Positions 40,906 through 50,816 of a stretch of 50,832 nt of DNA are shown piece by piece. The position numbers and the translations under genes are program-made. Below the pieces are notes generated by a model that was not told the DNA's origin, ran no database searches, and saw nothing but the letters and a program-made list of their open reading frames with translations. This DNA is from Rhodocyclales bacterium (lineage in GTDB: Bacteria > Pseudomonadota > Gammaproteobacteria > Burkholderiales > Rhodocyclaceae), in assembly GCA_026399475.1 (NCBI GenBank), contig JAPLQY010000032.1, forward strand, positions 213,817 to 264,648. The letters are read 5' to 3'. The first letter of the stretch is position 1; each line of letters starts with the position of its first letter.

Positions 40906-41430
40906 TTAGCGGATCACGCCGCAGGCCACGCGCTTGCCCGAGTTGCCGGCAGGCTGCGATTTGTAGTCGTCGGGATCGGCATGGATCACCACGCTGCGTT
41001 TGAGGATACCGGCCGGGCCTTCCGTCAGCGAGAGCATGTCCAACTCGGCGGAAAGCGTGGCTTTGCCGGAACTGTCGGCCACCAGGTTGGGCATGTCACC
41101 GGCGTGGCGCTCGCTGCCGCCGTGGTGGCCGTGTGGCCTGCCCGCCGGATTGAAGTGCCCCTTGGCGCTGCTGGCATCGGCCGCGCTGCAATCGCCGGCT
41201 TCATGGACGTGGAAGCCATGCGCGCCGGGTGTCAGTCCGGCGACATTGGCCTCGACGCGAAGCTTCTGGCCGACGGTCTGGAAGCTGACCGTGCCGGTGA
41301 CGCTGCTGCCGGAGCGGGATTCGAGCGTGGCGGTGGCCTTGGGGCCGGCGGCATCGATGGTGGCGCAGGCGGCGAGCAGGGTGCTCGCCGCGGCAAGACT
41401 GACGATGCGTACTGTTTTTCTTGCATTCAT
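40906..41430 (-). CDS. sodC: Superoxide dismutase [Cu-Zn], lipoprotein
   Basis: 174 aa from ATG 41430; longer frames run into the tRNA-Sec gene and are not coding. A lipobox LLAAC places the lipidated Cys at 22. Copper and zinc ligands appear as HGFHVHEAGDC, KGHFNP and RHAGDMPN, and the terminal KRVACGVI completes the disulfide. It detoxifies periplasmic superoxide. Placement inside the Sec/formate dehydrogenase island is notable because formate dehydrogenase is periplasm-facing and oxygen-sensitive. Confidence 0.93.
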   Translation of the reverse strand: MNARKTVRIVSLAAASTLLAACATIDAAGPKATATLESRSGSSVTGTVSFQTVGQKLRVEANVAGLTPGAHGFHVHEAGDCSAADASSAKGHFNPAGRPHGHHGGSERHAGDMPNLVADSSGKATLSAELDMLSLTEGPAGILKRSVVIHADPDDYKSQPAGNSGKRVACGVIR

Positions 41431-41450
41431 GAGGCTCTCCTTGGGTAGGG

Positions 41451-41546
41451 TGGCGGAAGAGAGCGGGAGTCGAACCCACCAAGGACCGCATGGCGACCCC
41501 TGCCGGTTTTGAAGACCGGCCGCCCCACCGGGGAACGTTCTCTTCC
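41451..41546 (-). tRNA. selC: tRNA-Sec (UCA)
   Basis: 96 nt including encoded CCA, read on the minus strand. The acceptor stem has eight pairs, GGAAGAGA/TCTCTTCC, as in bacterial tRNA-Sec. The anticodon stem CCGGT/ACCGG encloses the loop CTTCAAA with TCA, and a long variable arm precedes the T arm (GGTTCGACTCC). It reads UGA as selenocysteine with SelB. It sits 12 bp after selB, probably in the same transcript. Confidence 0.97.
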
Positions 41547-41558
41547 GTTGTTCGTTAA

Positions 41559-43529
41559 TTATTTGTTTAGCCATGCGTGGGTCGAATCGGTGCCGCGCAA
41601 TCCGTGCTCGTCACGCACACGGCGAGTGTAGCCGATGCGGTCGAAGAATTCGAGGATGTGAATCGCCACCTTGCGCCCGCCGCCAATGTGGTCGCGCAGG
41701 TCGGCGGCACGCGCCGCGCCCTTCTCCGCATTGAGTTCGGCGACGAGCGCCGCAAGCTGCGCCACGGCATCCGCTGTGAAGTAGTGGTCATGCGCCACCG
41801 GGTAGAGTTCGCCGGCCCTCGCCACGCGGCGGAACAGCTGGCGTACTACATCTTCGGCGGTGCCCGAGTCGCGCGCGACGTCGCGCACGCGCGGCGGGCC
41901 GAAGGGCTGGGCGTCGAGTAGCGGGCGCAGCACGGCGAACAGGTCACGGTCGCCGGTGGCTAGGCTGGCCTGGTGTTCAGGCAGGTGCAGCCAGGCACGC
42001 GAGGCGGCCAGCCGTCCGGCCGCGAGCAGTTCGGCGACGAGTGTGTCGAATGCGGCGCGGGCCAGCGTAGGCAGCGTCAGCCGGCGCAGACGCTCGCGCT
42101 CGACACCGACCATGTCGGGTGCGCGCTGGTGCTCTGTGGCGAGTGCCGCAAGCAGTTTGTCGCCCAGCGCCTGCCAGCCTGAGGCAGCAAAACCGATCTG
42201 CTCTTCGCCGGCGTGGATCACGCGCAGCTCGGCGGCCGGCCACAATGTGGCAGCAGCCTCATCGGTGAGATTCCAGTTAGCGGCAAAACGAACCAGATCG
42301 ACGCCGGAGGTCGATTGCTCCGCCATGAGGCACAGACCTGTCGCCGGATCGTCATCGCGCAGCGCATTCAGCAGCGCCAGCCGCGTCGGGCTGCGCTTGT
42401 GGCGCGAGGGCGGAAAGCAGTCGAGCACGCGGCCGCCGGCGATGCTGCGTTGGGCCGACGCATCGCGCAGCACGAAGCGGTCGCCGCGCACAGTGATGGT
42501 TTCGTGATCCAGCAGGATTTCCGCCAGCGCGGTGGCGCCGGGCGCAATCTGGCCGCCTTCCAGCAGCGCGACGCGGCCGGTGATGTCGGCGGCGCCCAGA
42601 TGCACATGCACCGGCGTCCAGTGCTTCAGCGCCAGCTGTGTCGCCGGCACCTTCAAGTCGGCCTGAAAACGCGTGAGTGGAAAATGCGGCGGCCGGGCGA
42701 CGGCTGGATCGACGACCCACATGCCGCGCTCGAGATCCTTCTTTTCGAAGTCGCCGGTCAGCGCCAGCGCGCAGCGGTCGCCGGCCTGCCCGTGTTCGGC
42801 CGGCCGATCCTGCACATGCAGGCTCTTCACCCGCGCCTTGAGTCCATCGCGGCCGGCGGGGGAAACACTCACCGTGTCGCCAGCGCCGACTTTTCCCGAG
42901 AAGGCGGTGCCGGTAACGACGGTGCCGATGCCCGAGAGCGTGAAGCAGCGGTCGATGGCGAGACGGAAGCGGCCGTGTTTGGGAAACTCCGCACTGCGCG
43001 TCCGGTGCGCTGCCGCCACCGCGTCGAGATGAGCGCGCAGTTCAGGCACGCCTTCGCCGCTTGTCGCCGACAACGCAAACACCGGGCTGCCTTCGAGTCG
43101 CGTCCCGGTCAGCAGTGTTTCTATTTCGCCACGCGCCGCGGCGACGCGTGCCGCATCCACCGTGTCGCATTTGGTCAGGGCTACGGCGCCATGGTCGAGA
43201 CCGAGCAGACCGAGCAACTCCAGATGTTCGCGCGTCTGCGGCATCGGTCCGTCGTCGGCAGCGATCACCAGCAGCACGAAGTCGATGCCGGTAGCACCTG
43301 CCAGCATGTTGTGGATCAGCTTCTCGTGCCCGGGCACGTCGATGAAACCGAGTACCGAACCGTCTGCCTGTGGCGCGTAGGCATAGCCGAGGTCGAGCGT
43401 GATGCCGCGCGCCTTCTCCTCCGGCAGGCGGTCGGCATCGACGCCGGTGAGCGCCTTCACCAGCGTGGTTTTGCCGTGGTCGATGTGACCTGCAGTTCCG
43501 ATAATCATTTGCCGATGCTCATTTGACAA
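41559..43529 (-). CDS. selB: Selenocysteine-specific elongation factor SelB
   Basis: 656 aa. GTPase motifs are [19 protein letters not shown] in two parts, [19 protein letters not shown] and TKCD. EF-Tu-like domains II and III follow, then four C-terminal winged helices that bind the SECIS hairpin, ending [22 protein letters not shown] in pieces. It delivers Sec-tRNA to UGA codons. The start could be 43529 or the internal Met at 43508 ([12 protein letters not shown]); neither has a clear ribosome site. It begins 3 nt after the transglutaminase-like stop. Confidence 0.97.
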
Positions 43530-43532
43530 CCA

Positions 43533-44633
43533 TTACGCGGCGGTGATCTCCTTCGACGTCAACTTGTACACGAAGGTGGCCGGATCGAGGCTGTCGAGCC
43601 GGCCGGTGCTGTTCTCGGCCTGCGGGTACATGAAGAAGGGAATTTTCGCGCCGCTGGAACCCGGCAGCTTGAGGTCGTGGGCGGTGTTGTAGGCCAGCCA
43701 GTTCATCTCCCAGGCGCCGAACAGTTTTTGCCGCGCGGCGATCACCACCTCGTCCTTCAGCGTCAGGCCCGGCTTTTCCTCCAGCACTACCTTGCGCACG
43801 TCGGCCGGGTCCACCGGCACCCAGCCGAAATTCGCCAGCCAGACTTCGGCGCGGCAATGTTGCGCCTTGCTGATGTCGCCGCTCTTGCCCAGGCTCTTGT
43901 AGCCGAATTTCGAGTCGGCGACGCGCACGCCGTACACGTCGCGCGCCGGCATGCCGAGGGAGCGGGCCATGCCGACGTAGAGCGCGTTGAGGTCGGCGCA
44001 CTTGCCGCTGAGGTTGCCCGATTCGAGCATGCCGCGAATGTCGCCGGTGCCGCAGCCGCGGGTCTTGGGGTTGCGTTCCGTGTTGTCGACCACCCATTCG
44101 TACAGAACCCTGGCCTTGTCGAGATCGGTCCTGGCACCTTTGGTGATTTCCAGCGCGGTCTTCTTCACGATGCCGTCGGTCGGCAGCAGCTCGGTGGCGT
44201 GGGTGTAGAGCCTGCGTGCGGCAGCGTCGAGCGGCGCCACCTTGCCCGGCTGCGACAGATCGATGGCACGGTCGCGCGCGGCGAAACGGCTTACCACTTC
44301 GACCACCGGCGCCGGCTCGCCGGCATCCCATTGTGCGGCCAGCATCTGCGCGCCGTAGGCCGCGTCGCGCAACGGCTGCACGGAGGCGGCATTGCCCTGC
44401 CAGAGGTTGCCCATCGGTTTGATCCAGGCGGCATCCTCCACGGCGGGCAGGGGCAGCCACAGGCGCGGCGCTCCATTGGCGGCGGAGAGCTCGACGCGGC
44501 TGGTGACTTCGAACACGCGCCAGCCGTTGGCGGGAGTGGGGTTGAATCCGCCTTCGGCGGCATTGGCAAAGCGCGGTGCGACGAGTGCCGCGGCGGACAG
44601 GCCAGCGGTCTTGATGAAGGAACGACGGTCCAT
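43533..44633 (-). CDS. Tat-exported transglutaminase-like protein
   Basis: 366 aa from ATG 44633. DRRSFIKTAGLSAAALVAP is a twin-arginine signal. The core carries a Cys-His-Asp triad in transglutaminase order: SGKCADLNALYVGMARSLGMPAR in pieces, then AQHCRAEVWLANFGWVPVDPAD. Such domains act as periplasmic cysteine proteases or amidases. It lies 16 bp after the TlpA-like gene and 3 bp before selB, inside the Sec operon, suggesting co-expression. No substrate can be named. Confidence 0.85.
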   Translation of the reverse strand: MDRRSFIKTAGLSAAALVAPRFANAAEGGFNPTPANGWRVFEVTSRVELSAANGAPRLWLPLPAVEDAAWIKPMGNLWQGNAASVQPLRDAAYGAQMLAAQWDAGEPAPVVEVVSRFAARDRAIDLSQPGKVAPLDAAARRLYTHATELLPTDGIVKKTALEITKGARTDLDKARVLYEWVVDNTERNPKTRGCGTGDIRGMLESGNLSGKCADLNALYVGMARSLGMPARDVYGVRVADSKFGYKSLGKSGDISKAQHCRAEVWLANFGWVPVDPADVRKVVLEEKPGLTLKDEVVIAARQKLFGAWEMNWLAYNTAHDLKLPGSSGAKIPFFMYPQAENSTGRLDSLDPATFVYKLTSKEITAA

Positions 44634-44649
44634 GGTTTTCTCCGGGGAA

Positions 44650-45171
44650 TTAGTTGATGAGTTTTTTGAGTTGTTTGTCGATGGCGGGCGCATCCCAATC
44701 GATGGCGCCCTGGCCGCGCAGAACAATGCGATGGCGGCGGTCGAGGACGACGGTGGTGGGCAGCACGCGTGCGCCCCAGGCGCGGCTGATGGTCTGCTCG
44801 CGGTCGTGCAGTACGGGAAGCTCGGCCGACGCTTCCCAAAGGAAGTCCTCGACCAGCTTCACATTGTCGGCGACCGCGATGGTTTGGACGACAAGCCCTT
44901 TCGTCTTCCAGCGCGCCGCGAGGCGCGCCAGCGCGGGCATTTCCTCGCGGCAGGGTTCGCACCAGGTGGCCCAGAAGTTCACCAGCACGGGCTTGCCTTT
45001 GTGCGCCGCCAGTATCTGCGCGAGGCGCGAGTCGACCGTAGCCGGAACGGCGCGCGGCGCCACGGCTTTCAGCACCGCTGCGGGCGTGGGCGCCGCATAG
45101 GCCGCAGGCAGCAGCAAACTGAAAATAATCGGCGGAGCTGCCGCCAAAGCAAAAAAACATCGATGCATCAT
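44650..45171 (-). CDS. TlpA-like periplasmic thioredoxin
   Basis: 173 aa; ATG 45171 and 45168 are adjacent, and GGGAGG favours the second. A signal peptide (FFALAAAPPIIFSLLLPAAYA) is followed by a TlpA/ResA-type domain with FWATWCEPCREEMP (redox pair Cys71/Cys74) and LPTTVVLDRRHRI with the cis-Pro. It reduces periplasmic disulfides. Its position between selA and the transglutaminase-like gene, in an island with a second thioredoxin-like gene containing selenocysteine, suggests a redox partner role. Confidence 0.92.
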   Translation of the reverse strand: MMHRCFFALAAAPPIIFSLLLPAAYAAPTPAAVLKAVAPRAVPATVDSRLAQILAAHKGKPVLVNFWATWCEPCREEMPALARLAARWKTKGLVVQTIAVADNVKLVEDFLWEASAELPVLHDREQTISRAWGARVLPTTVVLDRRHRIVLRGQGAIDWDAPAIDKQLKKLIN

Positions 45172-45196
45172 CGTGCCTCCCGTTCTGTTGCAACCG

Positions 45197-45241
45197 CCGC
45201 GGAGCGGAAACCACCGCGGCTTACGATGCTCCCGCAGGAGC
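45197..45241 (-). repeat. Two hairpins between selA and tlpA-like gene
   Basis: CCGCGG (45197-45202) pairs with CCGCGG (45213-45218), and GCTCC-CGCA-GGAGC (45228-45241) follows. The second, with the flanking GGCCCTACG, resembles a REP-type hairpin. No T-tract follows, so it may be an mRNA-stability or partial-terminator element within the operon. Confidence 0.5.
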
Positions 45242-45245
45242 GGCC

Positions 45246-46646
45246 CTACGCACCCAGTCCGCTCAGGGCGGAAAGCTGGGCAGCGAATTCGGATTCTTCG
45301 TGTTCTGCCAGGCAGCGCAGGTCGAGCAGCAGCGCGCCGTCCTCGATGCGGCCGATCACCGGTTTCGACAGGGCGCGCAGGCCCTGCTCGATGCGATTCA
45401 ATACTCCACTGCGCTTGCCCTGCGGGCGGATGGCGAAGCCGGCGGACGGCAGGCGATTCACCGGCAGCGAGCCGGAGCCGATCTGTGATTTCAGCGCAAC
45501 AATTTCTGCCGTCACCGGCAATCCGGCCAGTGCCGATCGCAGCGCGGGCAGCAGGCGCGCCGCCTGCGCCGCGATCTCGGCCTCGGGCCGGGTCAATTGG
45601 CGCACGGCGGTGACGCGCAGATGCAGGCGGTCGGGATCGCGGTAGAGCCCCAGCACCGCTTCCAGCGCGGCGAGTGTGAGCTTGCCGACGCGCAGGGCGC
45701 GCTTCAGCGGGTTCTTCTTGATTTTCGCGATCAGATCCTTGCGGCCCACCAGCAGGCCGGCCTGCGGCCCGCCCAGCAGCTTGTCGCCGGAAAAGGTGAC
45801 GAGGTCCGCGCCGGCGGCGATGGCCTCCGTCGGCGTCGGTTCGTGCGGCAGGCCGTAGGTGGCCAGATCGGTCAGCGTGCCGCTGCCCAGGTCGATGACG
45901 AAGGGGAGATTGTGCTGGTGCGCCAGCGCGGCGAGTTCGGCTTCCGGTACTGCATGGGTGAAGCCGTGGATCGCGTAGTTACTGGCGTGCACCTTCATCA
46001 GCATGGCCGTGCGCGGATTGATGCTCTCGGCGAAATCCTTGAGATGGGTGCGATTGGTGGTGCCGACCTCGACCAGCTTCGCCCCGGCGCGGCTCATGAT
46101 GTCGGGTACGCGAAAGGCGCCGCCGATTTCGATCAGTTCGCCGCGCGAGACGATCACCTGCTTTTTCTGCGCCAGTGTGTTGAGCAGCAGGAACACGGCG
46201 GCGGCGTTGTTATTCACCACGGTGGCGGCTTCGGCGCCGGTGAGTTCGCAGAGCAGGTCGGCGACCACGTTGTCGCGATCGCCGCGACCGCCGGATTCGA
46301 TGTCGTACTCCAGCGCGCAAGGGTTGCGTGCGGCGGTGATCAGCGCTTGCACCGCTTCCTCGGGTAGCGGCGCGCGGCCCAGGTTGGTGTGCAGCACGGT
46401 GCCGGTAAGATTGAACACCGGGCGCAACTTCGGCCGCATTTTCGCCGTGATGCCAGCGCCGACTTTTGCCAGCAACGCTGGCTCATCGGGCAGCGACGTG
46501 CCCTCCCTGGCTGCGGCGCGGGTCGCAGCGAGAACCTCGCGAACAATGCTGGTAACCACGGCGCGGCCGTGCGTGTCGACCAGGGAGGCGAGCGCCGTGG
46601 AGGACAGCAGGCGGTCGACGGAAGGAAGCTGGGAAAGTGGATTCAT
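45246..46646 (-). CDS. selA: L-seryl-tRNA(Sec) selenium transferase SelA
   Basis: 466 aa from ATG 46646; the frame stays open upstream but that part is not homologous. It opens with LPSVDRLL, the SelA N-terminal domain. RPVFNLTGTVLHTNLGRAPL, NNNAAAVFLLLNTLA and TFSGDKLLGGPQAGLLVGRKD in pieces follow; the Lys of SGDKLLGG holds PLP. It converts Ser-tRNA-Sec to Sec-tRNA-Sec using selenophosphate. SelD, which supplies that, is not in the window. Confidence 0.97.
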   Translation of the reverse strand: MNPLSQLPSVDRLLSSTALASLVDTHGRAVVTSIVREVLAATRAAAREGTSLPDEPALLAKVGAGITAKMRPKLRPVFNLTGTVLHTNLGRAPLPEEAVQALITAARNPCALEYDIESGGRGDRDNVVADLLCELTGAEAATVVNNNAAAVFLLLNTLAQKKQVIVSRGELIEIGGAFRVPDIMSRAGAKLVEVGTTNRTHLKDFAESINPRTAMLMKVHASNYAIHGFTHAVPEAELAALAHQHNLPFVIDLGSGTLTDLATYGLPHEPTPTEAIAAGADLVTFSGDKLLGGPQAGLLVGRKDLIAKIKKNPLKRALRVGKLTLAALEAVLGLYRDPDRLHLRVTAVRQLTRPEAEIAAQAARLLPALRSALAGLPVTAEIVALKSQIGSGSLPVNRLPSAGFAIRPQGKRSGVLNRIEQGLRALSKPVIGRIEDGALLLDLRCLAEHEESEFAAQLSALSGLGA

Positions 46647-46778
46647 GATTTCACCCGGACCGGGCAGAAACGAGATGGAAACATTGTAGCGGCTTCCGGG
46701 GTTTTCGCGCGGCGCTTGACGTGAAACAACATGTTCGGAGCGACTGGTGATAGTCGAGCGCAGCGAGCCAATCAATAA

Positions 46779-46796
46779 CCTCCCCGCGAGGGGAGG
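46779..46796. repeat. G/C hairpin intergenic element, second copy
   Basis: CCTCCCC-GCGA-GGGGAGG is a perfect 7-bp stem with a GNRA loop, followed by ATGGGAGGGGCGGG. It is related to the hairpin at 10831-10851. It lies in the 316-bp gap between selA and the HPP gene, which otherwise shows only scattered G/C-rich sequence. Confidence 0.55.
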
Positions 46797-46962
46797 ATGG
46801 GAGGGGCGGGCCTTCAATTCGCCTTTCGCGTGTTTCATCATCGGCGGGTGGCTCTCGCTGCCATGAGCGTTAGCGCTTTGCAAGAGCGAGGGCGAACGTG
46901 TCAGTATTTGTCCGGCAGGAACAACGCACGGCGCAAAGCCGGCACCGAACGGGGAATGGGAG

Positions 46963-47721
46963 ATGACTATGCGGAATCGGGTGACAGCGTCGCCATGGCA
47001 GCAAATGCTGGGTATTGAATTCAGCCCGGTGAGCCATCGCGAACGGTGGGTATCGGCGCTTGGCGGTTTTGTCGGCTTGCTCGTGATCTATTTCGTCAGC
47101 CACGCGCTTGGCGGCCCGCCGTCGGCGCCACTGCTGATCTTTTCGATCGGCGCCTCGACGGTGCTGGTGTTCGCGGTACCGCACGGGTCGCTCTCGCAGC
47201 CATGGCCGGTGTTCGGCGGCCATCTGGTCGCGGCACTGATCGGCGTCGCCTGCGCACGCCTGGTGCCGAACGCGGCACTCGCCGCGGCGACGGCGGTGGG
47301 CTTGTCCGTTCTCGCGATGCATTACCTGCGCTGCATCCATCCGCCCGGCGGCGCAACGGCACTGGTGGCCGTACTCGGCGGCCCGTCGGTGCCGGCGCTG
47401 GGCTTTGGCTTCGTACTGGCGCCGGTGCTGCTCAATGTGCTGTTGTTGCTGGCGGCGGGCGTCGCCTTCAATGCATTCTTTCCCTGGCGCCGCTACCCCG
47501 CCTTCCTCGCGCGCCACTCCGCGGCGTCGGAGCCAGCCACTGGCTACGCCGCGATTTCGCATGAGGACTTCGTCTTCGCCCTGACGCAGATGGACTCCTT
47601 CATCGATATTTCCGAAGACGATTTGCTGCGCATCTACGGCCTGGCGACCGGAAGGCATCGCGCGATGGAAGAGCGGGCGGCCGTAGCCGCCCGCAGCGTC
47701 AACTCTGCTGCGCCGCCTTGA
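46963..47721 (+). CDS. HPP family membrane protein
   Basis: 252 aa. Four or five transmembrane helices carry ALGGFVGLLVIYFVSHALGG, ILIF-like LLIFSIGASTVLVFAVPHG, PWPVFGGHLVAALIGVACARL in pieces and the family motif CIHPPGGATAL. HPP proteins are integral membrane proteins linked to nitrite or anion transport in some lineages. The C-terminal 70 residues are soluble and lack a CBS pair. A second Met at 46969 has better spacing from GGGAG. It is the only plus-strand gene of the island, and its end overlaps the selenoprotein gene by 23 bp. Confidence 0.85.
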   Translation: MTMRNRVTASPWQQMLGIEFSPVSHRERWVSALGGFVGLLVIYFVSHALGGPPSAPLLIFSIGASTVLVFAVPHGSLSQPWPVFGGHLVAALIGVACARLVPNAALAAATAVGLSVLAMHYLRCIHPPGGATALVAVLGGPSVPALGFGFVLAPVLLNVLLLLAAGVAFNAFFPWRRYPAFLARHSAASEPATGYAAISHEDFVFALTQMDSFIDISEDDLLRIYGLATGRHRAMEERAAVAARSVNSAAPP

Positions 47722-48190
47722 AGGCGGAGAAGTCCATCTTGCGGTAATGCTTGCCGGAGACGAAGCGGTCAAGCAACAACGCGTCTTCCGGACTCTTGAG
47801 GCCGCCGCGAACACGGGCGACTTCCTTGCCCTGGGCATCGAGGAAGACCAGCACCGGATGGAGGCCGCTGCTGTTGTGGCGGGCGATCACGGCGTGCTTC
47901 GGATCCTTTTCGGCAAGCTCGCTGAAATCGACATGGGTGCTGACATAGTTCTTCGCGTACTGGCGGCTGACGTCGGGCTGGCTGAGCACACTCACGGTGT
48001 AGCGGCAGGCCCCTCAGTGCTGGTAGTCGCCGAAGTAGAGCATCACGTGCCGCTCCGGCGTCTTGGCGATCTGGGCCAGCGCGGCCTTGTCATCGCCGGC
48101 CAGGGTCAGCACGCCGTCGAGCCGGTCGGCGGCAAGCGCCGGCAGGCTCAGCGCGGCGGCGAGGGCAAACAGGGAAAGCAGGCGTCTCAT
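47699..48190 (-). CDS. Thioredoxin-like selenoprotein (UxxC), read through TGA
   Basis: 163 aa if TGA 48014-48016 is read as selenocysteine (Sec59). ATG 48190 has AAGGAG seven bases upstream. A signal peptide (MRRLLSLFALAAALSLPALA) precedes HVMLYFGDYQH, then U-G-A-C with resolving Cys62. In the same frame come RYTVSVLSQPDVSRQYAKNY and a cis-Pro strand LHPVLVFLDAQGKEVAR. This is the SoxW-like periplasmic thioredoxin layout, where CxxC is expected. A SECIS-type hairpin follows the TGA, and fdhE, selA, selB and selC are neighbours. Without Sec it would be two fragments of 58 and about 98 residues. Sequencing error is the main alternative. Confidence 0.85.
47986..48003 (-). promoter_or_regulatory. 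Bacterial SECIS hairpin candidate
   Basis: Starting 11 nt after the UGA, the RNA folds as GC-(U)-ACAC-CGUGA-GUGU-GC: a bulged U, four pairs, and a five-base loop containing GU. In E. coli fdhF the SelB-binding hairpin has the same order, with bulged U at +14 and the loop GU at +20/+21; here they are at +13 and +19/+20. The fold is by eye, but every pair is Watson-Crick. Confidence 0.75.
48014..48016 (-). other. Selenocysteine codon (TGA recoding site)
   Basis: TGA in frame between CAC (His58) and GGG (Gly60), at the first position of the expected CxxC. No other stop interrupts the frame from 48190 to the terminal TGA at 47699-47701. Confidence 0.82.
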
Positions 48191-48327
48191 CGGGGTCTCC
48201 TTGCTTGGGGTTGAGGGCACATATCCGCTGACAGTCCAATGTGACATATGGTTCCGCAAAACGCCGTTACCTGCCCGCGAAGCGGAATCCCAGGTACGCA
48301 GAGCGAGCCAGCTCAGACTTTCGAGAA

Positions 48328-49245
48328 TCAGCCGCCCGGCACCAGCAGCAGGTTCGGCCCGCTGCGGGCATAGCCGGCCTCGTCGACCAGGATGTCCAGC
48401 GCCAGCGTGGCGAGATCGTCGGCCACCGGGTCGACGGTGTCCTTTTCCGAGTAGACGATCTTGAGATAGCTCTTGCACGACTCGCAGGTTTCGGCGCGCA
48501 CGGCGCCGGCGGTCTTGATGTCTTCGCTTTCGAGGTGGCGATAGCTGATGCCTTCGTTGGCGTCGCAACTGCTGCATTTGACGCGCACCAGGTTCCATTC
48601 GGTATTGCACAGGGCGCAATGCAGGTAGCGCAGGTTGCTGGTCTCGCCGCTGTTGCGCACGATGCTGGCGACCGGCAGAAAGCCGCAGCAGGGGCAGACT
48701 CCGGGCACGTCGAGCGCGGCGATATCGCTGACGCCGAGGCGCGCCGCGCCTGCGGTCCACAGCACCTGCAGCGCGGCCGCGACATAGGGCAGCAGGGCGG
48801 CATCCTCGCCATACAGTTCGGTATGCAGCACGCGTTCGGCCAGCGCCTCGATGCGCTCGGCATCGCAGGCGGCGAGGCGGGCCAGATCGTTGCGCGCCGC
48901 TTCGGGTGCGGCAGGGGAGACGGCGGCAATGATTTGCAGCAGGCTCTTGCGCCAGGCTGGGTCGCGCGGCCAGGACTGGGCCGGCAGCGGCGGCATGCGG
49001 TGCTCGCGGGCGCGGGCCAACTGGGCCGCATCGGGCAGCGCCAGCGCCGGCAGGGATTGCAGCGCCTCGTGCTGGGCGCGGGTGATGGCGGCGAGAAAGC
49101 GCAGCCAGTCGCTCAAGGTGTGGCCTTCGGCGAGTTGCTCGAAGCGCTGCGCGCGCGTGGCGAAAATTGTCTTTGCGTCGGGGGCGATGACGTGCGGCGG
49201 TTCGCTGCTCGACTTGATCGGGATGACGGATGTGGTGGTATTCAT
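48328..49245 (-). CDS. fdhE: Formate dehydrogenase accessory protein FdhE
   Basis: 305 aa. An N-terminal helical region (FATRAQRFEQLAEGHTL) precedes a rubredoxin-like domain with four Cys pairs: GVCPCCGFLPVAS, LHCALCNTEWN, VKCSSCDANEG and TCESCKSYLKIVY. FdhE binds iron and acts as a cytoplasmic chaperone for Tat-exported formate dehydrogenase subunits. It follows fdoI after a hairpin and precedes the selenoprotein gene by 137 bp. Confidence 0.95.
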   Translation of the reverse strand: MNTTTSVIPIKSSSEPPHVIAPDAKTIFATRAQRFEQLAEGHTLSDWLRFLAAITRAQHEALQSLPALALPDAAQLARAREHRMPPLPAQSWPRDPAWRKSLLQIIAAVSPAAPEAARNDLARLAACDAERIEALAERVLHTELYGEDAALLPYVAAALQVLWTAGAARLGVSDIAALDVPGVCPCCGFLPVASIVRNSGETSNLRYLHCALCNTEWNLVRVKCSSCDANEGISYRHLESEDIKTAGAVRAETCESCKSYLKIVYSEKDTVDPVADDLATLALDILVDEAGYARSGPNLLLVPGG

Positions 49246-49257
49246 AATGTAGAAACA

Positions 49258-49281
49258 ACCCGCGGGCCGAAGCCCGCGGGT
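49258..49281 (-). other. Hairpin between fdoI and fdhE
   Basis: ACCCGCGGGC-TTCG-GCCCGCGGGT is a perfect 10-bp stem with a UUCG loop on the minus strand, followed by TGTTT and then the fdhE start 12 nt on. The weak T run suggests partial termination or an mRNA stabiliser that sets the ratio of structural to accessory protein. Confidence 0.7.
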
Positions 49282-49308
49282 ATTGGGTGGAAAGTTCAGC
49301 AGTTCGGG

Positions 49309-49932
49309 TTACGACTTGCCGGTGACCTGACGATACCACGCCCGGTGATGCTGCTTGGCCCAGGCGCGGGTGACCGTGCCGTAGACCATGGCGCGGACCG
49401 TGCCCCTGACCCACAGCGCGGCATAGACGTGCACGAAGATCATCGCGATCATGATTGCGGCGATCGCGGAATGGACCACGGCGCCGAGGCGCACCACATC
49501 CACCGGCAGGCTGAAGTAGGCGCGCCAGAGGAAGAGGCCGGAGACGAACAGCAGCAGCATGCACAAGGTCATGACCCAGAACATTGCCTTCTGGCCGCCG
49601 TTGTACTTGCCCTGTTCCGGCATGTTGTGGTCGTTGCCGCTCATCATTTCGCCCGCCCTCGACAGCCATTCCTTGTCCGCCGGCGTCATGACGTTGAGCG
49701 CCTTGAAGCGGAAGAACATGACCAGAAAGGCTCCGGCCATGATGACGCCAAGGTAGGGATGCAGGATGCGCGCCCAGACGCCGCCGCCGAACAACTGCGT
49801 GAGCGGCCAGAACGCCGGATGGAAAAAGGCCAGCCCCGAGAGCGCGAGCAGGATGAAGCTGATGCCCACCGCCCAGTGATTGGCCCGCTCGTGCGCGTCA
49901 TAGCGCGTGAGGTCTTTCGGATTGCGGATCAT
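49309..49932 (-). CDS. Formate dehydrogenase cytochrome b subunit (gamma)
   Basis: 207 aa with four transmembrane helices. [28 protein letters not shown] in pieces carries a heme-ligating His. Further His residues lie in [16 protein letters not shown] and [22 protein letters not shown]. It is the di-heme b subunit that takes electrons from the Fe-S subunit to the quinone pool (FdnI/FdoI type). It overlaps fdoH by four bases. Confidence 0.94.
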
Positions 49933-50816
49933 TTTTCATCCTCCTTTTCCAGCTCGTCTTCCAGTTCCTTGGACACTTCGTTCGGCCCCTTCATGACGTA
50001 GTGGAACAGGCTGCCCAATGCCACGGCGGCCATGGCCACGCTCGCCAGCGGCTTGGCGAAGCCCTTCCACAGCGAGACCAGCGGACTGATGCTCGGGTCG
50101 CTCGGCAGGCCCTTGTACAACTCCGGCCGGTCGGCGTGGTGCAGCACGTACATGACGTGGGTGCCGCCTACGCCTTGAGGGTCGTAGAGCCCCGCCTTGT
50201 CGTAGCCGCGCGACTTGAGGTCGACGACCCGCTTGGCGGCGTAATCCGTCATCTGCTCCTTCGAGCCGAACTGGATGGCACCGGTCGGGCAGGCCTTGGC
50301 GCAGGCCGGAGCCTGGCCGACGGCGACCCGGTCGGAACACAAGGTGCACTTGTAGGCCTTGTTGTCCGCCTCGGAAATGCGCGGCACGTTGAAGGGACAG
50401 CCGGTGATGCAGTAGCCGCAGCCGATGCAGTTTTCCTGGTGGAAGTCGACAATGCCATTGGCGTACTGGATGATGGCGCCGGGGGCCGGACAGGCCTTGA
50501 GGCAGCCCGGATCGGCGCAATGCATGCAGCCGTCCTTGCGGATCAGCCACTCCAGCTTGCCCTTCTCTTCCACTTCGGCGAAACGCATCACGGTCCACGA
50601 TTTGGCCGTCAGGTCCACCGGGTTGTCATACACCCCGGAACAGCTGCCGACTTCGTCGCGGATGTCGTTCCATTCCATGCACGCCGCCTGACAGGCCTTG
50701 CAGCCGATGCAGGTGGAAACGTCGATCAGCTTGGCCACTTCCGTGGTTTGCCGAATGCCGGGTGCCGGGGTGGTCGTCGCCGAGCGGCGGGCGATATCTA
50801 GCGATTGCAGTGCCAT
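49929..50816 (-). CDS. Formate dehydrogenase iron-sulfur subunit (beta)
   Basis: 295 aa with AAGGAG before the start. It holds four [4Fe-4S] motifs: [45 protein letters not shown], and [21 protein letters not shown] in pieces. A C-terminal membrane anchor ([17 protein letters not shown]) faces the periplasm. It relays electrons from the selenomolybdo-catalytic subunit to the cytochrome b subunit. The catalytic gene should lie immediately upstream, outside the window; a TAA 5-10 nt before the ribosome site may be its stop. Confidence 0.96.

What the first reader, a model, noticed from the sequence alone, without database searches (positions are those of the whole stretch)
47699..48190. A hidden thioredoxin-like selenoprotein (UxxC) in the formate dehydrogenase/Sec island
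A signal peptide-bearing thioredoxin-fold gene is open from 48190 to 47699 except for one TGA, placed exactly at the first active-site Cys (YFGDYQH-U-GAC). A strong ribosome site precedes the ATG, and the downstream part keeps frame and thioredoxin features. SelA, SelB, tRNA-Sec and FdhE genes surround it. A periplasmic selenothiol next to formate dehydrogenase suggests a redox repair, thiol-exchange or peroxide-defence role tied to that enzyme. Standard gene callers would split or drop it.
Basis: partly seen in the sequence, partly recalled or inferred. Interest (0 to 1): 0.95.

Follow-up and report, generated by a model that had tools for sequence, protein, structure and literature searches.

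The report
Hidden thioredoxin-like selenoprotein beside formate dehydrogenase
A bacterial gene that protein databases hold almost only as a shortened fragment carries a TGA "stop" codon exactly at its catalytic position in all 26 copies examined, and it likely makes a selenium-containing, thioredoxin-like protein predicted to do redox repair outside the inner membrane, in a bacterial group reported in 2006 to have formate dehydrogenase as its only selenoprotein.

Summary
In detail: 47699-48190 (minus strand) is one gene with an in-frame TGA at 48014-48016. Twenty-six loci (the window's included; 24 distinct sequences, about 52-99% identical) carry TGA at that column and keep UxxC; no Cys orthologue was found. 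Cys homologues (23-34% identical) align their first active-site Cys with the TGA. Right after the TGA, 17 of 18 consecutive bases are identical in 24 of 24 sequences; they can form a hairpin meeting published bacterial SECIS criteria, and this core occurs in 297 family genomes only at the 16 copies of the gene. All 15 carrier genomes have SelB, against 71 of 282 others. The gene usually lies between formate dehydrogenase genes and selA-selB-tRNA-Sec, but 20 of 24 copies have a conserved promoter-like element of their own and some lie away from formate dehydrogenase. Best reading: a new, apparently Sec-only family of periplasmic thioredoxin-fold selenoproteins, probably a DsbD-fed reductase of oxidised thiols. 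Sec insertion, export and function are untested. It is a new member of a known kind, notable as a second selenoprotein in a lineage reported to have only one.

The parts
47699..48190 (-). trxU (name used here only): thioredoxin-like gene, 163 codons plus stop, with in-frame TGA at codon 59
   Evidence: PF13098, 27.9 bits, cut-off 27; orthologues
48014..48016 (-). TGA codon 59, likely read as selenocysteine; U-G-A-C active site with C62
   Evidence: TGA in 26 of 26 loci; aligns with the first Cys of CxxC in 18 of 18 Cys homologues of alignment A3
47986..48003 (-). SECIS-like core hairpin GCUACACCGUGAGUGUGC, beginning 10 nt after the UGA, loop CGUGA
   Evidence: core found only at trxU in 297 family genomes
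48197..48202 (-). ribosome-binding site AAGGAG
48227..48256 (-). conserved promoter-like element CGGAACC...TGTCAGC upstream of trxU
   Evidence: GGAACC-N15/17-GTC in 20 of 24 distinct orthologous loci, 0 of 45 other homologous loci
48131..48190 (-). signal-peptide-like N-terminus (about residues 1-20, judged by eye; no predictor was run)
   Evidence: translation; low model confidence for residues 1-20
48328..49245 (-). fdhE frame
   Evidence: TIGR01562 over cut-off
49309..49932 (-). fdhI frame (formate dehydrogenase gamma subunit)
   Evidence: TIGR01583 over cut-off
49929..50816 (-). fdhH frame (formate dehydrogenase beta subunit)
   Evidence: TIGR01582 over cut-off
46963..47721 (+). convergent HPP-family membrane gene, 3' end overlapping that of trxU
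   Evidence: PF04982
45246..46883 (-). selA frame (true start probably further in; the family match begins at residue 83-84)
   Evidence: TIGR00474
41559..43529 (-). selB frame
   Evidence: TIGR00475
41451..41546 (-). tRNA-Sec (selC)
   Evidence: RF01852

Best explanation
Window 47699-48190 (minus strand) is one gene whose conserved in-frame TGA at codon 59 is likely decoded as selenocysteine, giving a predicted periplasmic thioredoxin-fold protein with a U-x-x-C active site. SelB with Sec-tRNA (encoded about 4-6 kb downstream) would bind the hairpin that begins 10 nt after the UGA and insert Sec there. The product would be exported by its signal-like N-terminus; its selenolate (U59) would attack oxidised thiols (disulfides, sulfenic acids, perhaps peroxides) in the periplasm, C62 would resolve the mixed selenyl-sulfide, and a DsbD-type reductase would recharge it. 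A promoter-like element of its own suggests that it is switched on by envelope or oxidative stress rather than only transcribed with formate dehydrogenase. Shown by sequence: one gene, the conserved TGA, the UxxC/CxxC alignment, the frozen RNA element, co-occurrence with SelB. Inferred: Sec insertion itself, export, reductase direction, DsbD partnership, stress control. I put about 0.95 on the selenoprotein and about 0.5 on the general periplasmic reductase role; the number below is for the first sentence.
For: TGA in 26 of 26 loci, 24 distinct sequences, UxxC kept (20 UGAC, 3 UGTC, 1 UPFC). In 297 family genomes 16 matches at 53-99% identity all have the TGA and 18 at 27-34% have no stop. Cys homologues: 18 of 18 in alignment A3 have Cys at the TGA column. 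dN/dS about 0.3 on both sides. Codons +4 to +9: 17 of 18 bases identical in 24 of 24; SECIS criteria of PMC13188914 met; core only at the 16 gene copies in 297 genomes, reversed control 0. SelB over cut-off in 15 of 15 carriers against 71 of 282 others. Within 10 kb of Sec genes in 21 of the 22 loci that could be judged. Model pLDDT 90.8, nearest solved folds DsbH and DsbD gamma. DsbD_N in 15 of 15 carriers (non-carriers not compared). Upstream element in 20 of 24.
Against: No peptide, 75Se or readthrough data. Pair counts show no covariation above shuffles; the hairpin core alone is weak (about -3.5 kcal/mol); the individual minimum-energy folds show it in 16 of 24, one more with an extra pair, and 7 fold otherwise; synonymous-shuffle fractions were 0.002-0.198 in the 6 of 24 tested. 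The Fisher test ignores phylogeny. The upstream element is not enriched genome-wide and no sigma factor was identified. Export rests on inspection, not on a predictor.
Confidence: 0.93

Rival explanations
1. It is a selenoprotein, but dedicated to formate dehydrogenase: it would keep the Sec/Cys residues of the exported FDH reduced during maturation, or repair them after oxidation.
For: Formate dehydrogenase genes lie upstream on the same strand in 17 of 24 distinct loci; in L045 the convergent neighbour is a formate/nitrite transporter.
Against: Seven of 24 loci show no FDH gene in the stretch held (two of these, L008 and L010, cut short by contig ends); most copies have their own promoter-like element; many SelB-bearing genomes of the family lack the gene (71 without it).
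Confidence: 0.25
2. It is a selenoprotein that serves the selenium system itself, for example reducing or delivering selenium compounds, or reporting Sec supply by whether its own TGA is read.
For: selA follows trxU directly in L055 and L057 (about 40 nt) and Sec genes are near in 21 of 22 loci that could be judged.
Against: Signal-like N-terminus places it outside the cytoplasm, where Sec synthesis happens; selA-selB clusters without it are common in the family; in L052 it is far from Sec genes.
Confidence: 0.1
3. The TGA is passed by ordinary stop-codon readthrough or another residue, not by Sec insertion.
For: No direct evidence of Sec; E. coli-type SelB recognition of this loop is untested.
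Against: SelB in 15 of 15 carriers; frozen SECIS-like element unique to the gene; Cys at the same column in homologues; same arrangement as the fdhG element.
Confidence: 0.03
4. Two genes: the piece after the TGA is a separate short protein, as databases have it.
For: 99 of 100 listed database relatives start after the TGA.
Against: The upstream half is equally constrained (dN/dS 0.32) and is part of full-length Cys homologues in one frame; the downstream piece alone would lack the first strand and active site of the fold.
Confidence: 0.01
5. Sequencing error, assembly error or decaying pseudogene.
For: One base separates TGA from a Cys codon; the window's genome is a draft with 9.08% estimated contamination.
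Against: Same TGA in 26 of 26 loci from many assemblies, among them a single-contig genome, G069; purifying selection on both sides.
Confidence: 0.005

Closest known systems
'Thiol:disulfide interchange protein' selenoprotein, PF13098, UxxC (Table 1 of PMC13188914, example WP_011366075.1; named for Geobacter and Syntrophus in PMC1794560 passages)
   Same: Same Pfam domain (27.9 bits against 27) and UxxC motif.
   Different: Its sequence could not be fetched, so orthology is open; the published examples seen are delta-proteobacterial, this family is beta-proteobacterial, in the fdh-selAB island.
DsbH of Chlamydia and the DsbD gamma domain (periplasmic reducing thioredoxin-fold proteins)
   Same: Best solved-structure matches of the model (2ju5 E 7.3e-6; 2fwf E 1.6e-5); DsbH is described as reducing (PMC5193440 passages).
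   Different: About 21% identity; far below the NCBIfam DsbH cut-off (21.3 against 190 bits); they use CxxC, not UxxC.
TsoB, rhodanese/DsbD fusion-like selenoprotein (NF045694)
   Same: Weak match of its C-terminal part (23.2 bits).
   Different: Cut-off is 805 bits; TsoB is a 572-position fusion with two Sec.
Cys-containing thioredoxin-like homologues of the same family and order (L028-L042, L061-L065, L067-L090)
   Same: Alignable over the domain, CxxC with the first Cys at the TGA column (18 of 18 aligned; CxxC present in 44 of 44).
   Different: 23-34% identical, no TGA, none has the upstream element.
L066, TGA homologue in another family of the order
   Same: TGA at the same column, U-A-G-C, genome has SelB.
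   Different: 33% identical; its predicted hairpin differs and its loop starts 15 nt after the UGA, one short of the published range.

Membership tests
Bacterial selenoprotein | In-frame TGA conserved among orthologues at a redox position | tested here: met
   26 of 26 loci
Bacterial selenoprotein | Cys in place of Sec in homologues | tested here: met
   18 of 18 Cys homologues in A3; only distant homologues, no Cys orthologue found
Bacterial selenoprotein | bSECIS: apical loop 3-9 nt, upper stem 4-16 bp, G in first two loop positions, 16-37 nt from UGA, MFE at most -7.5 | tested here: met
   5-nt loop CGUGN, 17 nt from the UGA, MFE -9.8 to -21.7 in 24 of 24; no covariation, and 7 of 24 single-sequence folds differ
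Bacterial selenoprotein | Sec machinery in the genome | tested here: met
   SelB 15 of 15 carriers; selA, selB, tRNA-Sec in the window
Bacterial selenoprotein | Sec shown in the protein | not testable with these tools
   Needs 75Se or mass spectrometry
PF13098 UxxC 'thiol:disulfide interchange protein' selenoprotein | PF13098 domain and UxxC | tested here: met
   27.9 bits against cut-off 27 with Cys read for Sec; UxxC
PF13098 UxxC 'thiol:disulfide interchange protein' selenoprotein | Orthology with WP_011366075.1 | not testable with these tools
   Sequence not available here
TsoB (NF045694) | Model score over curated cut-off | tested here: not met
   23.2 against 805 bits
DsbH (NF043050) | Model score over curated cut-off | tested here: not met
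   21.3 against 190 bits
Classical thioredoxin (PF00085) | Pfam match | tested here: not met
   Not among matches at E up to 0.1
SoxW | Similarity to SoxW | not tested
   No SoxW sequence or model was compared

The most novel reading that the evidence does not exclude
A Sec-only family of periplasmic selenothiol reductases, stress-induced from its own ECF-type promoter: an envelope repair enzyme that gives beta-proteobacteria a second reason, besides formate dehydrogenase, to keep the selenocysteine machinery, and that has been missed because gene callers cut it at the catalytic codon.
Probability: 0.35. Interest if true: 0.8.

Novelty: new member of a known kind. Interest (0 to 1): 0.65.

Why it matters
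PMC1794560 (2006; passages read) states that Sec-decoding beta-proteobacteria have selA-selB-selC operons with a neighbouring fdhA, which encodes their only selenoprotein. This gene sits inside that same cluster and would be a second one, so the view that formate dehydrogenase alone sustains Sec there would need revising. No Cys form was found within its clade, unlike many selenoproteins, which have close Cys orthologues (recalled).

Tried and rejected
Pseudogene, sequencing error and independent downstream gene: rejected on the orthologues. Regulon search: GGAACC-N15/16-TGTC gave 11 hits in G069 (reversed control 19; one hit is trxU) and 10 in G000 (control 21; two hits are trxU), so no wider regulon emerged; a stricter pattern gave 3 hits in 4 genomes, two of them trxU. 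Of the listed sites (one search printed rows for 23 of 24 loci) one intergenic-looking site, L106, was looked at more closely; its six translated frames were read by eye and none suggested a sigma factor, no family search was run on them. A SigF/NrsF hypochlorite system was considered as regulator; only a search listing was seen, no link found. Covariation of the SECIS: 89.5% of cells paired, reached by 57 of 500 shuffles, 6 of 13 pairs never vary; slid versions paired 20-62%. Residues 20-90 as query found three C-terminal pieces among 27 candidates. Wider searches: 399 genomes of the order (62 with a match; TGA only in the own genome and L066) and 398 of the phylum (3 with a match; TGA only in the own genome). 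L013 (36% identical, CIPC) was dropped before the ortholog counts; L015 and L024 were dropped as identical to L009 and L012.

Full report
What is there. On the minus strand, 48190 to 47699 is one frame of 163 codons plus stop, interrupted only by TGA at 48016-48014. The product begins with a signal-peptide-like segment (judged by eye), then a thioredoxin-like domain (PF13098, 27.9 bits, cut-off 27, with Cys read for the TGA). Upstream on the same strand lie fdhE, fdhI and fdhH; downstream come a convergent HPP-family membrane gene, selA, selB and tRNA-Sec. The window ends where its contig ends, so fdhG is not in it.

The TGA is conserved. In 297 genomes of the same family a search gave 34 matches in 33 genomes: 16 (in 15 genomes, 53-99% identical) all have one internal TGA, and 18 (27-34% identical) have no stop. 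With ten relatives from named records (labelled Sulfuritalea, Rhodocyclales or beta proteobacterium) this makes 26 loci, the window's included, with 24 distinct coding sequences. In 26 of 26 the codon is TGA and UxxC is kept (20 UGAC, 3 UGTC, 1 UPFC among the 24). The window's own genome (estimated contamination 9.08%) holds a second copy, 68% identical, also with TGA. A search with residues 20-90, which should find a full-length Cys orthologue, returned three C-terminal pieces among 27 candidates; its reach is limited to relatives sharing short exact words.

Both halves are one protein. Median dN/dS is 0.32 upstream (signal-like part left out) and 0.30 downstream of the TGA. Forty-five homologous loci outside the ortholog set (three places counted twice) all have CxxC or, in L066, UxxC; in the 52-row alignment 18 of 18 Cys forms have Cys at the TGA column and at the C62 column. 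L066, in another family of the order, has the TGA again (U-A-G-C) in a genome with SelB. Of the two best-scoring Cys forms, L061 is in a genome without a SelB match and L062 in one with SelB. The AlphaFold model (Cys for Sec) has mean pLDDT 90.8 and pTM 0.83; its best PDB matches are Chlamydia DsbH and the DsbD gamma domain, at modest TM-scores of about 0.5-0.7. P112, the presumed cis-proline, is invariant in all 52 rows.

The SECIS. After the TGA, codons +4 to +9 (CGC TAC ACC GTG NGT GTG) are identical at 17 of 18 bases in 24 of 24 sequences; the one varying base (2 of 24) falls in the loop. Mean synonymous identity is 0.84 over codons +1 to +11 and about 0.65 elsewhere. The consensus fold is a hairpin with a bulged U and a CGUGN loop that starts 17 nt after the UGA; loop size, spacing, loop G and energy meet the criteria given in PMC13188914 in 24 of 24. 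Eight fdhG copies found in the 21 stretches scanned fold with the same arrangement, a bulged U six nucleotides before a loop GU, which also matches what I recall of the E. coli element. The 18-nt core occurs 16 times in the 297 family genomes, exactly at the 16 copies, and the reversed control never. Against: single-sequence folds show this hairpin in 16 of 24, one more with an extra pair, 7 otherwise; the core alone is weak; there is no covariation above shuffles; and folding energies beat synonymous shuffles only moderately (fractions 0.002-0.198 in the 6 of 24 tested). Invariance, not covariation, carries this point.

The machinery goes with it. SelB is over its cut-off in 86 of 297 family genomes, 15 of 15 carriers among them (Fisher p = 3.3e-9, phylogeny ignored). 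In the window's genus 10 of 13 genomes carry the gene; of the three without it two show no SelB match. Among the 24 distinct loci, FDH genes lie upstream on the same strand in 17, all with selA downstream; three more have selA-selB-tRNA-Sec but no FDH gene in the stretch held (L044, L055, L057); in L045 the Sec genes lie within 10 kb but not adjacent; L052 has none within about 10 kb (its selB is on another contig); L008 and L010 are cut by contig ends.

An upstream element of its own. Twenty of 24 distinct loci have GGAACC-N15/16-GTC 29-51 nt before the ATG, including loci with other neighbours (L008-L010, L014, L022); exceptions are L021, L025, L026 and L027, and L025 and L027 lie about 20 nt behind another gene. 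None of the 45 other homologous loci has it. It resembles a sigma-E type promoter: a passage of PMC2893595 gives GGAACTT as the E. coli -35 motif. It is not enriched genome-wide, so no regulator is named.

How it most likely works. Sec59 is likely inserted by SelB at the hairpin; the exported protein would reduce oxidised thiols through U59 and C62 and be recharged by DsbD (DsbD_N in 15 of 15 carriers; not compared with non-carriers). Fold neighbours that act as periplasmic reductants (DsbH: PMC5193440 passages) and the upstream element favour a general envelope repair role; the position between FDH genes and selA keeps an FDH-specific role alive.

What is known. PMC13188914 (outline, passages, section 5, section 7 parts 1-2 and section 9 read) reports more than 110 selenoprotein families, among them a PF13098 UxxC "thiol:disulfide interchange protein"; orthology with it could not be tested. 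No NCBIfam selenoprotein model reached its cut-off. PMC1794560 (passages) says FdhA is the only selenoprotein of Sec-decoding beta-proteobacteria; it dates from 2006. Searches of the held library for this protein found no report: searches returned no paper, only the review, and the papers and 79 other than those named here were seen as listings only. So the kind is known, the family appears undescribed within these searches, and its place in the beta-proteobacterial Sec island is the surprising part.

Noticed in passing
G000:C34:1-14000 (L043) and window 40906-50816: The own genome holds two fdh-trxU-HPP-selA-selB-tRNA-Sec-sodC islands; their trxU copies are only 68% identical. With 9.08% estimated contamination one may belong to another strain.
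   Followed up: partly
window 46963-47721; L045:8666-9535: The convergent 3' neighbour of trxU is an HPP-family membrane gene in 17 of 24 loci; in L045 it is a formate/nitrite transporter instead, and L008 has a convergent 289-codon frame at the same place (not family-tested).
   Followed up: partly
window 40906-41574: A Cu/Zn superoxide dismutase frame follows tRNA-Sec (the frame as listed overlaps the tRNA, so its start is too early); relatives of it follow the tRNA in several loci.
   Followed up: partly
window 43533-44726: A transglutaminase-like protein with a possible TAT signal sits between selA and selB; present there in some relatives and not detected in others.
   Followed up: no
L066:1426-1893: A second, distant TGA lineage (U-A-G-C) of the same protein type in another family of the order; database pieces P0102 and P0103 belong to it.
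   Followed up: partly
P0005: One 130-residue database protein (9 member sequences, 1 contig) has the N- and C-terminal parts joined without the Sec region; true deletion or artefact unknown.
   Followed up: no
L055:4552-7251; L057:10202-12922: In two genomes trxU lies about 20 nt behind an acyl-CoA synthetase/GNAT acetyltransferase-type gene and about 40 nt before selA, without the upstream element.
   Followed up: partly
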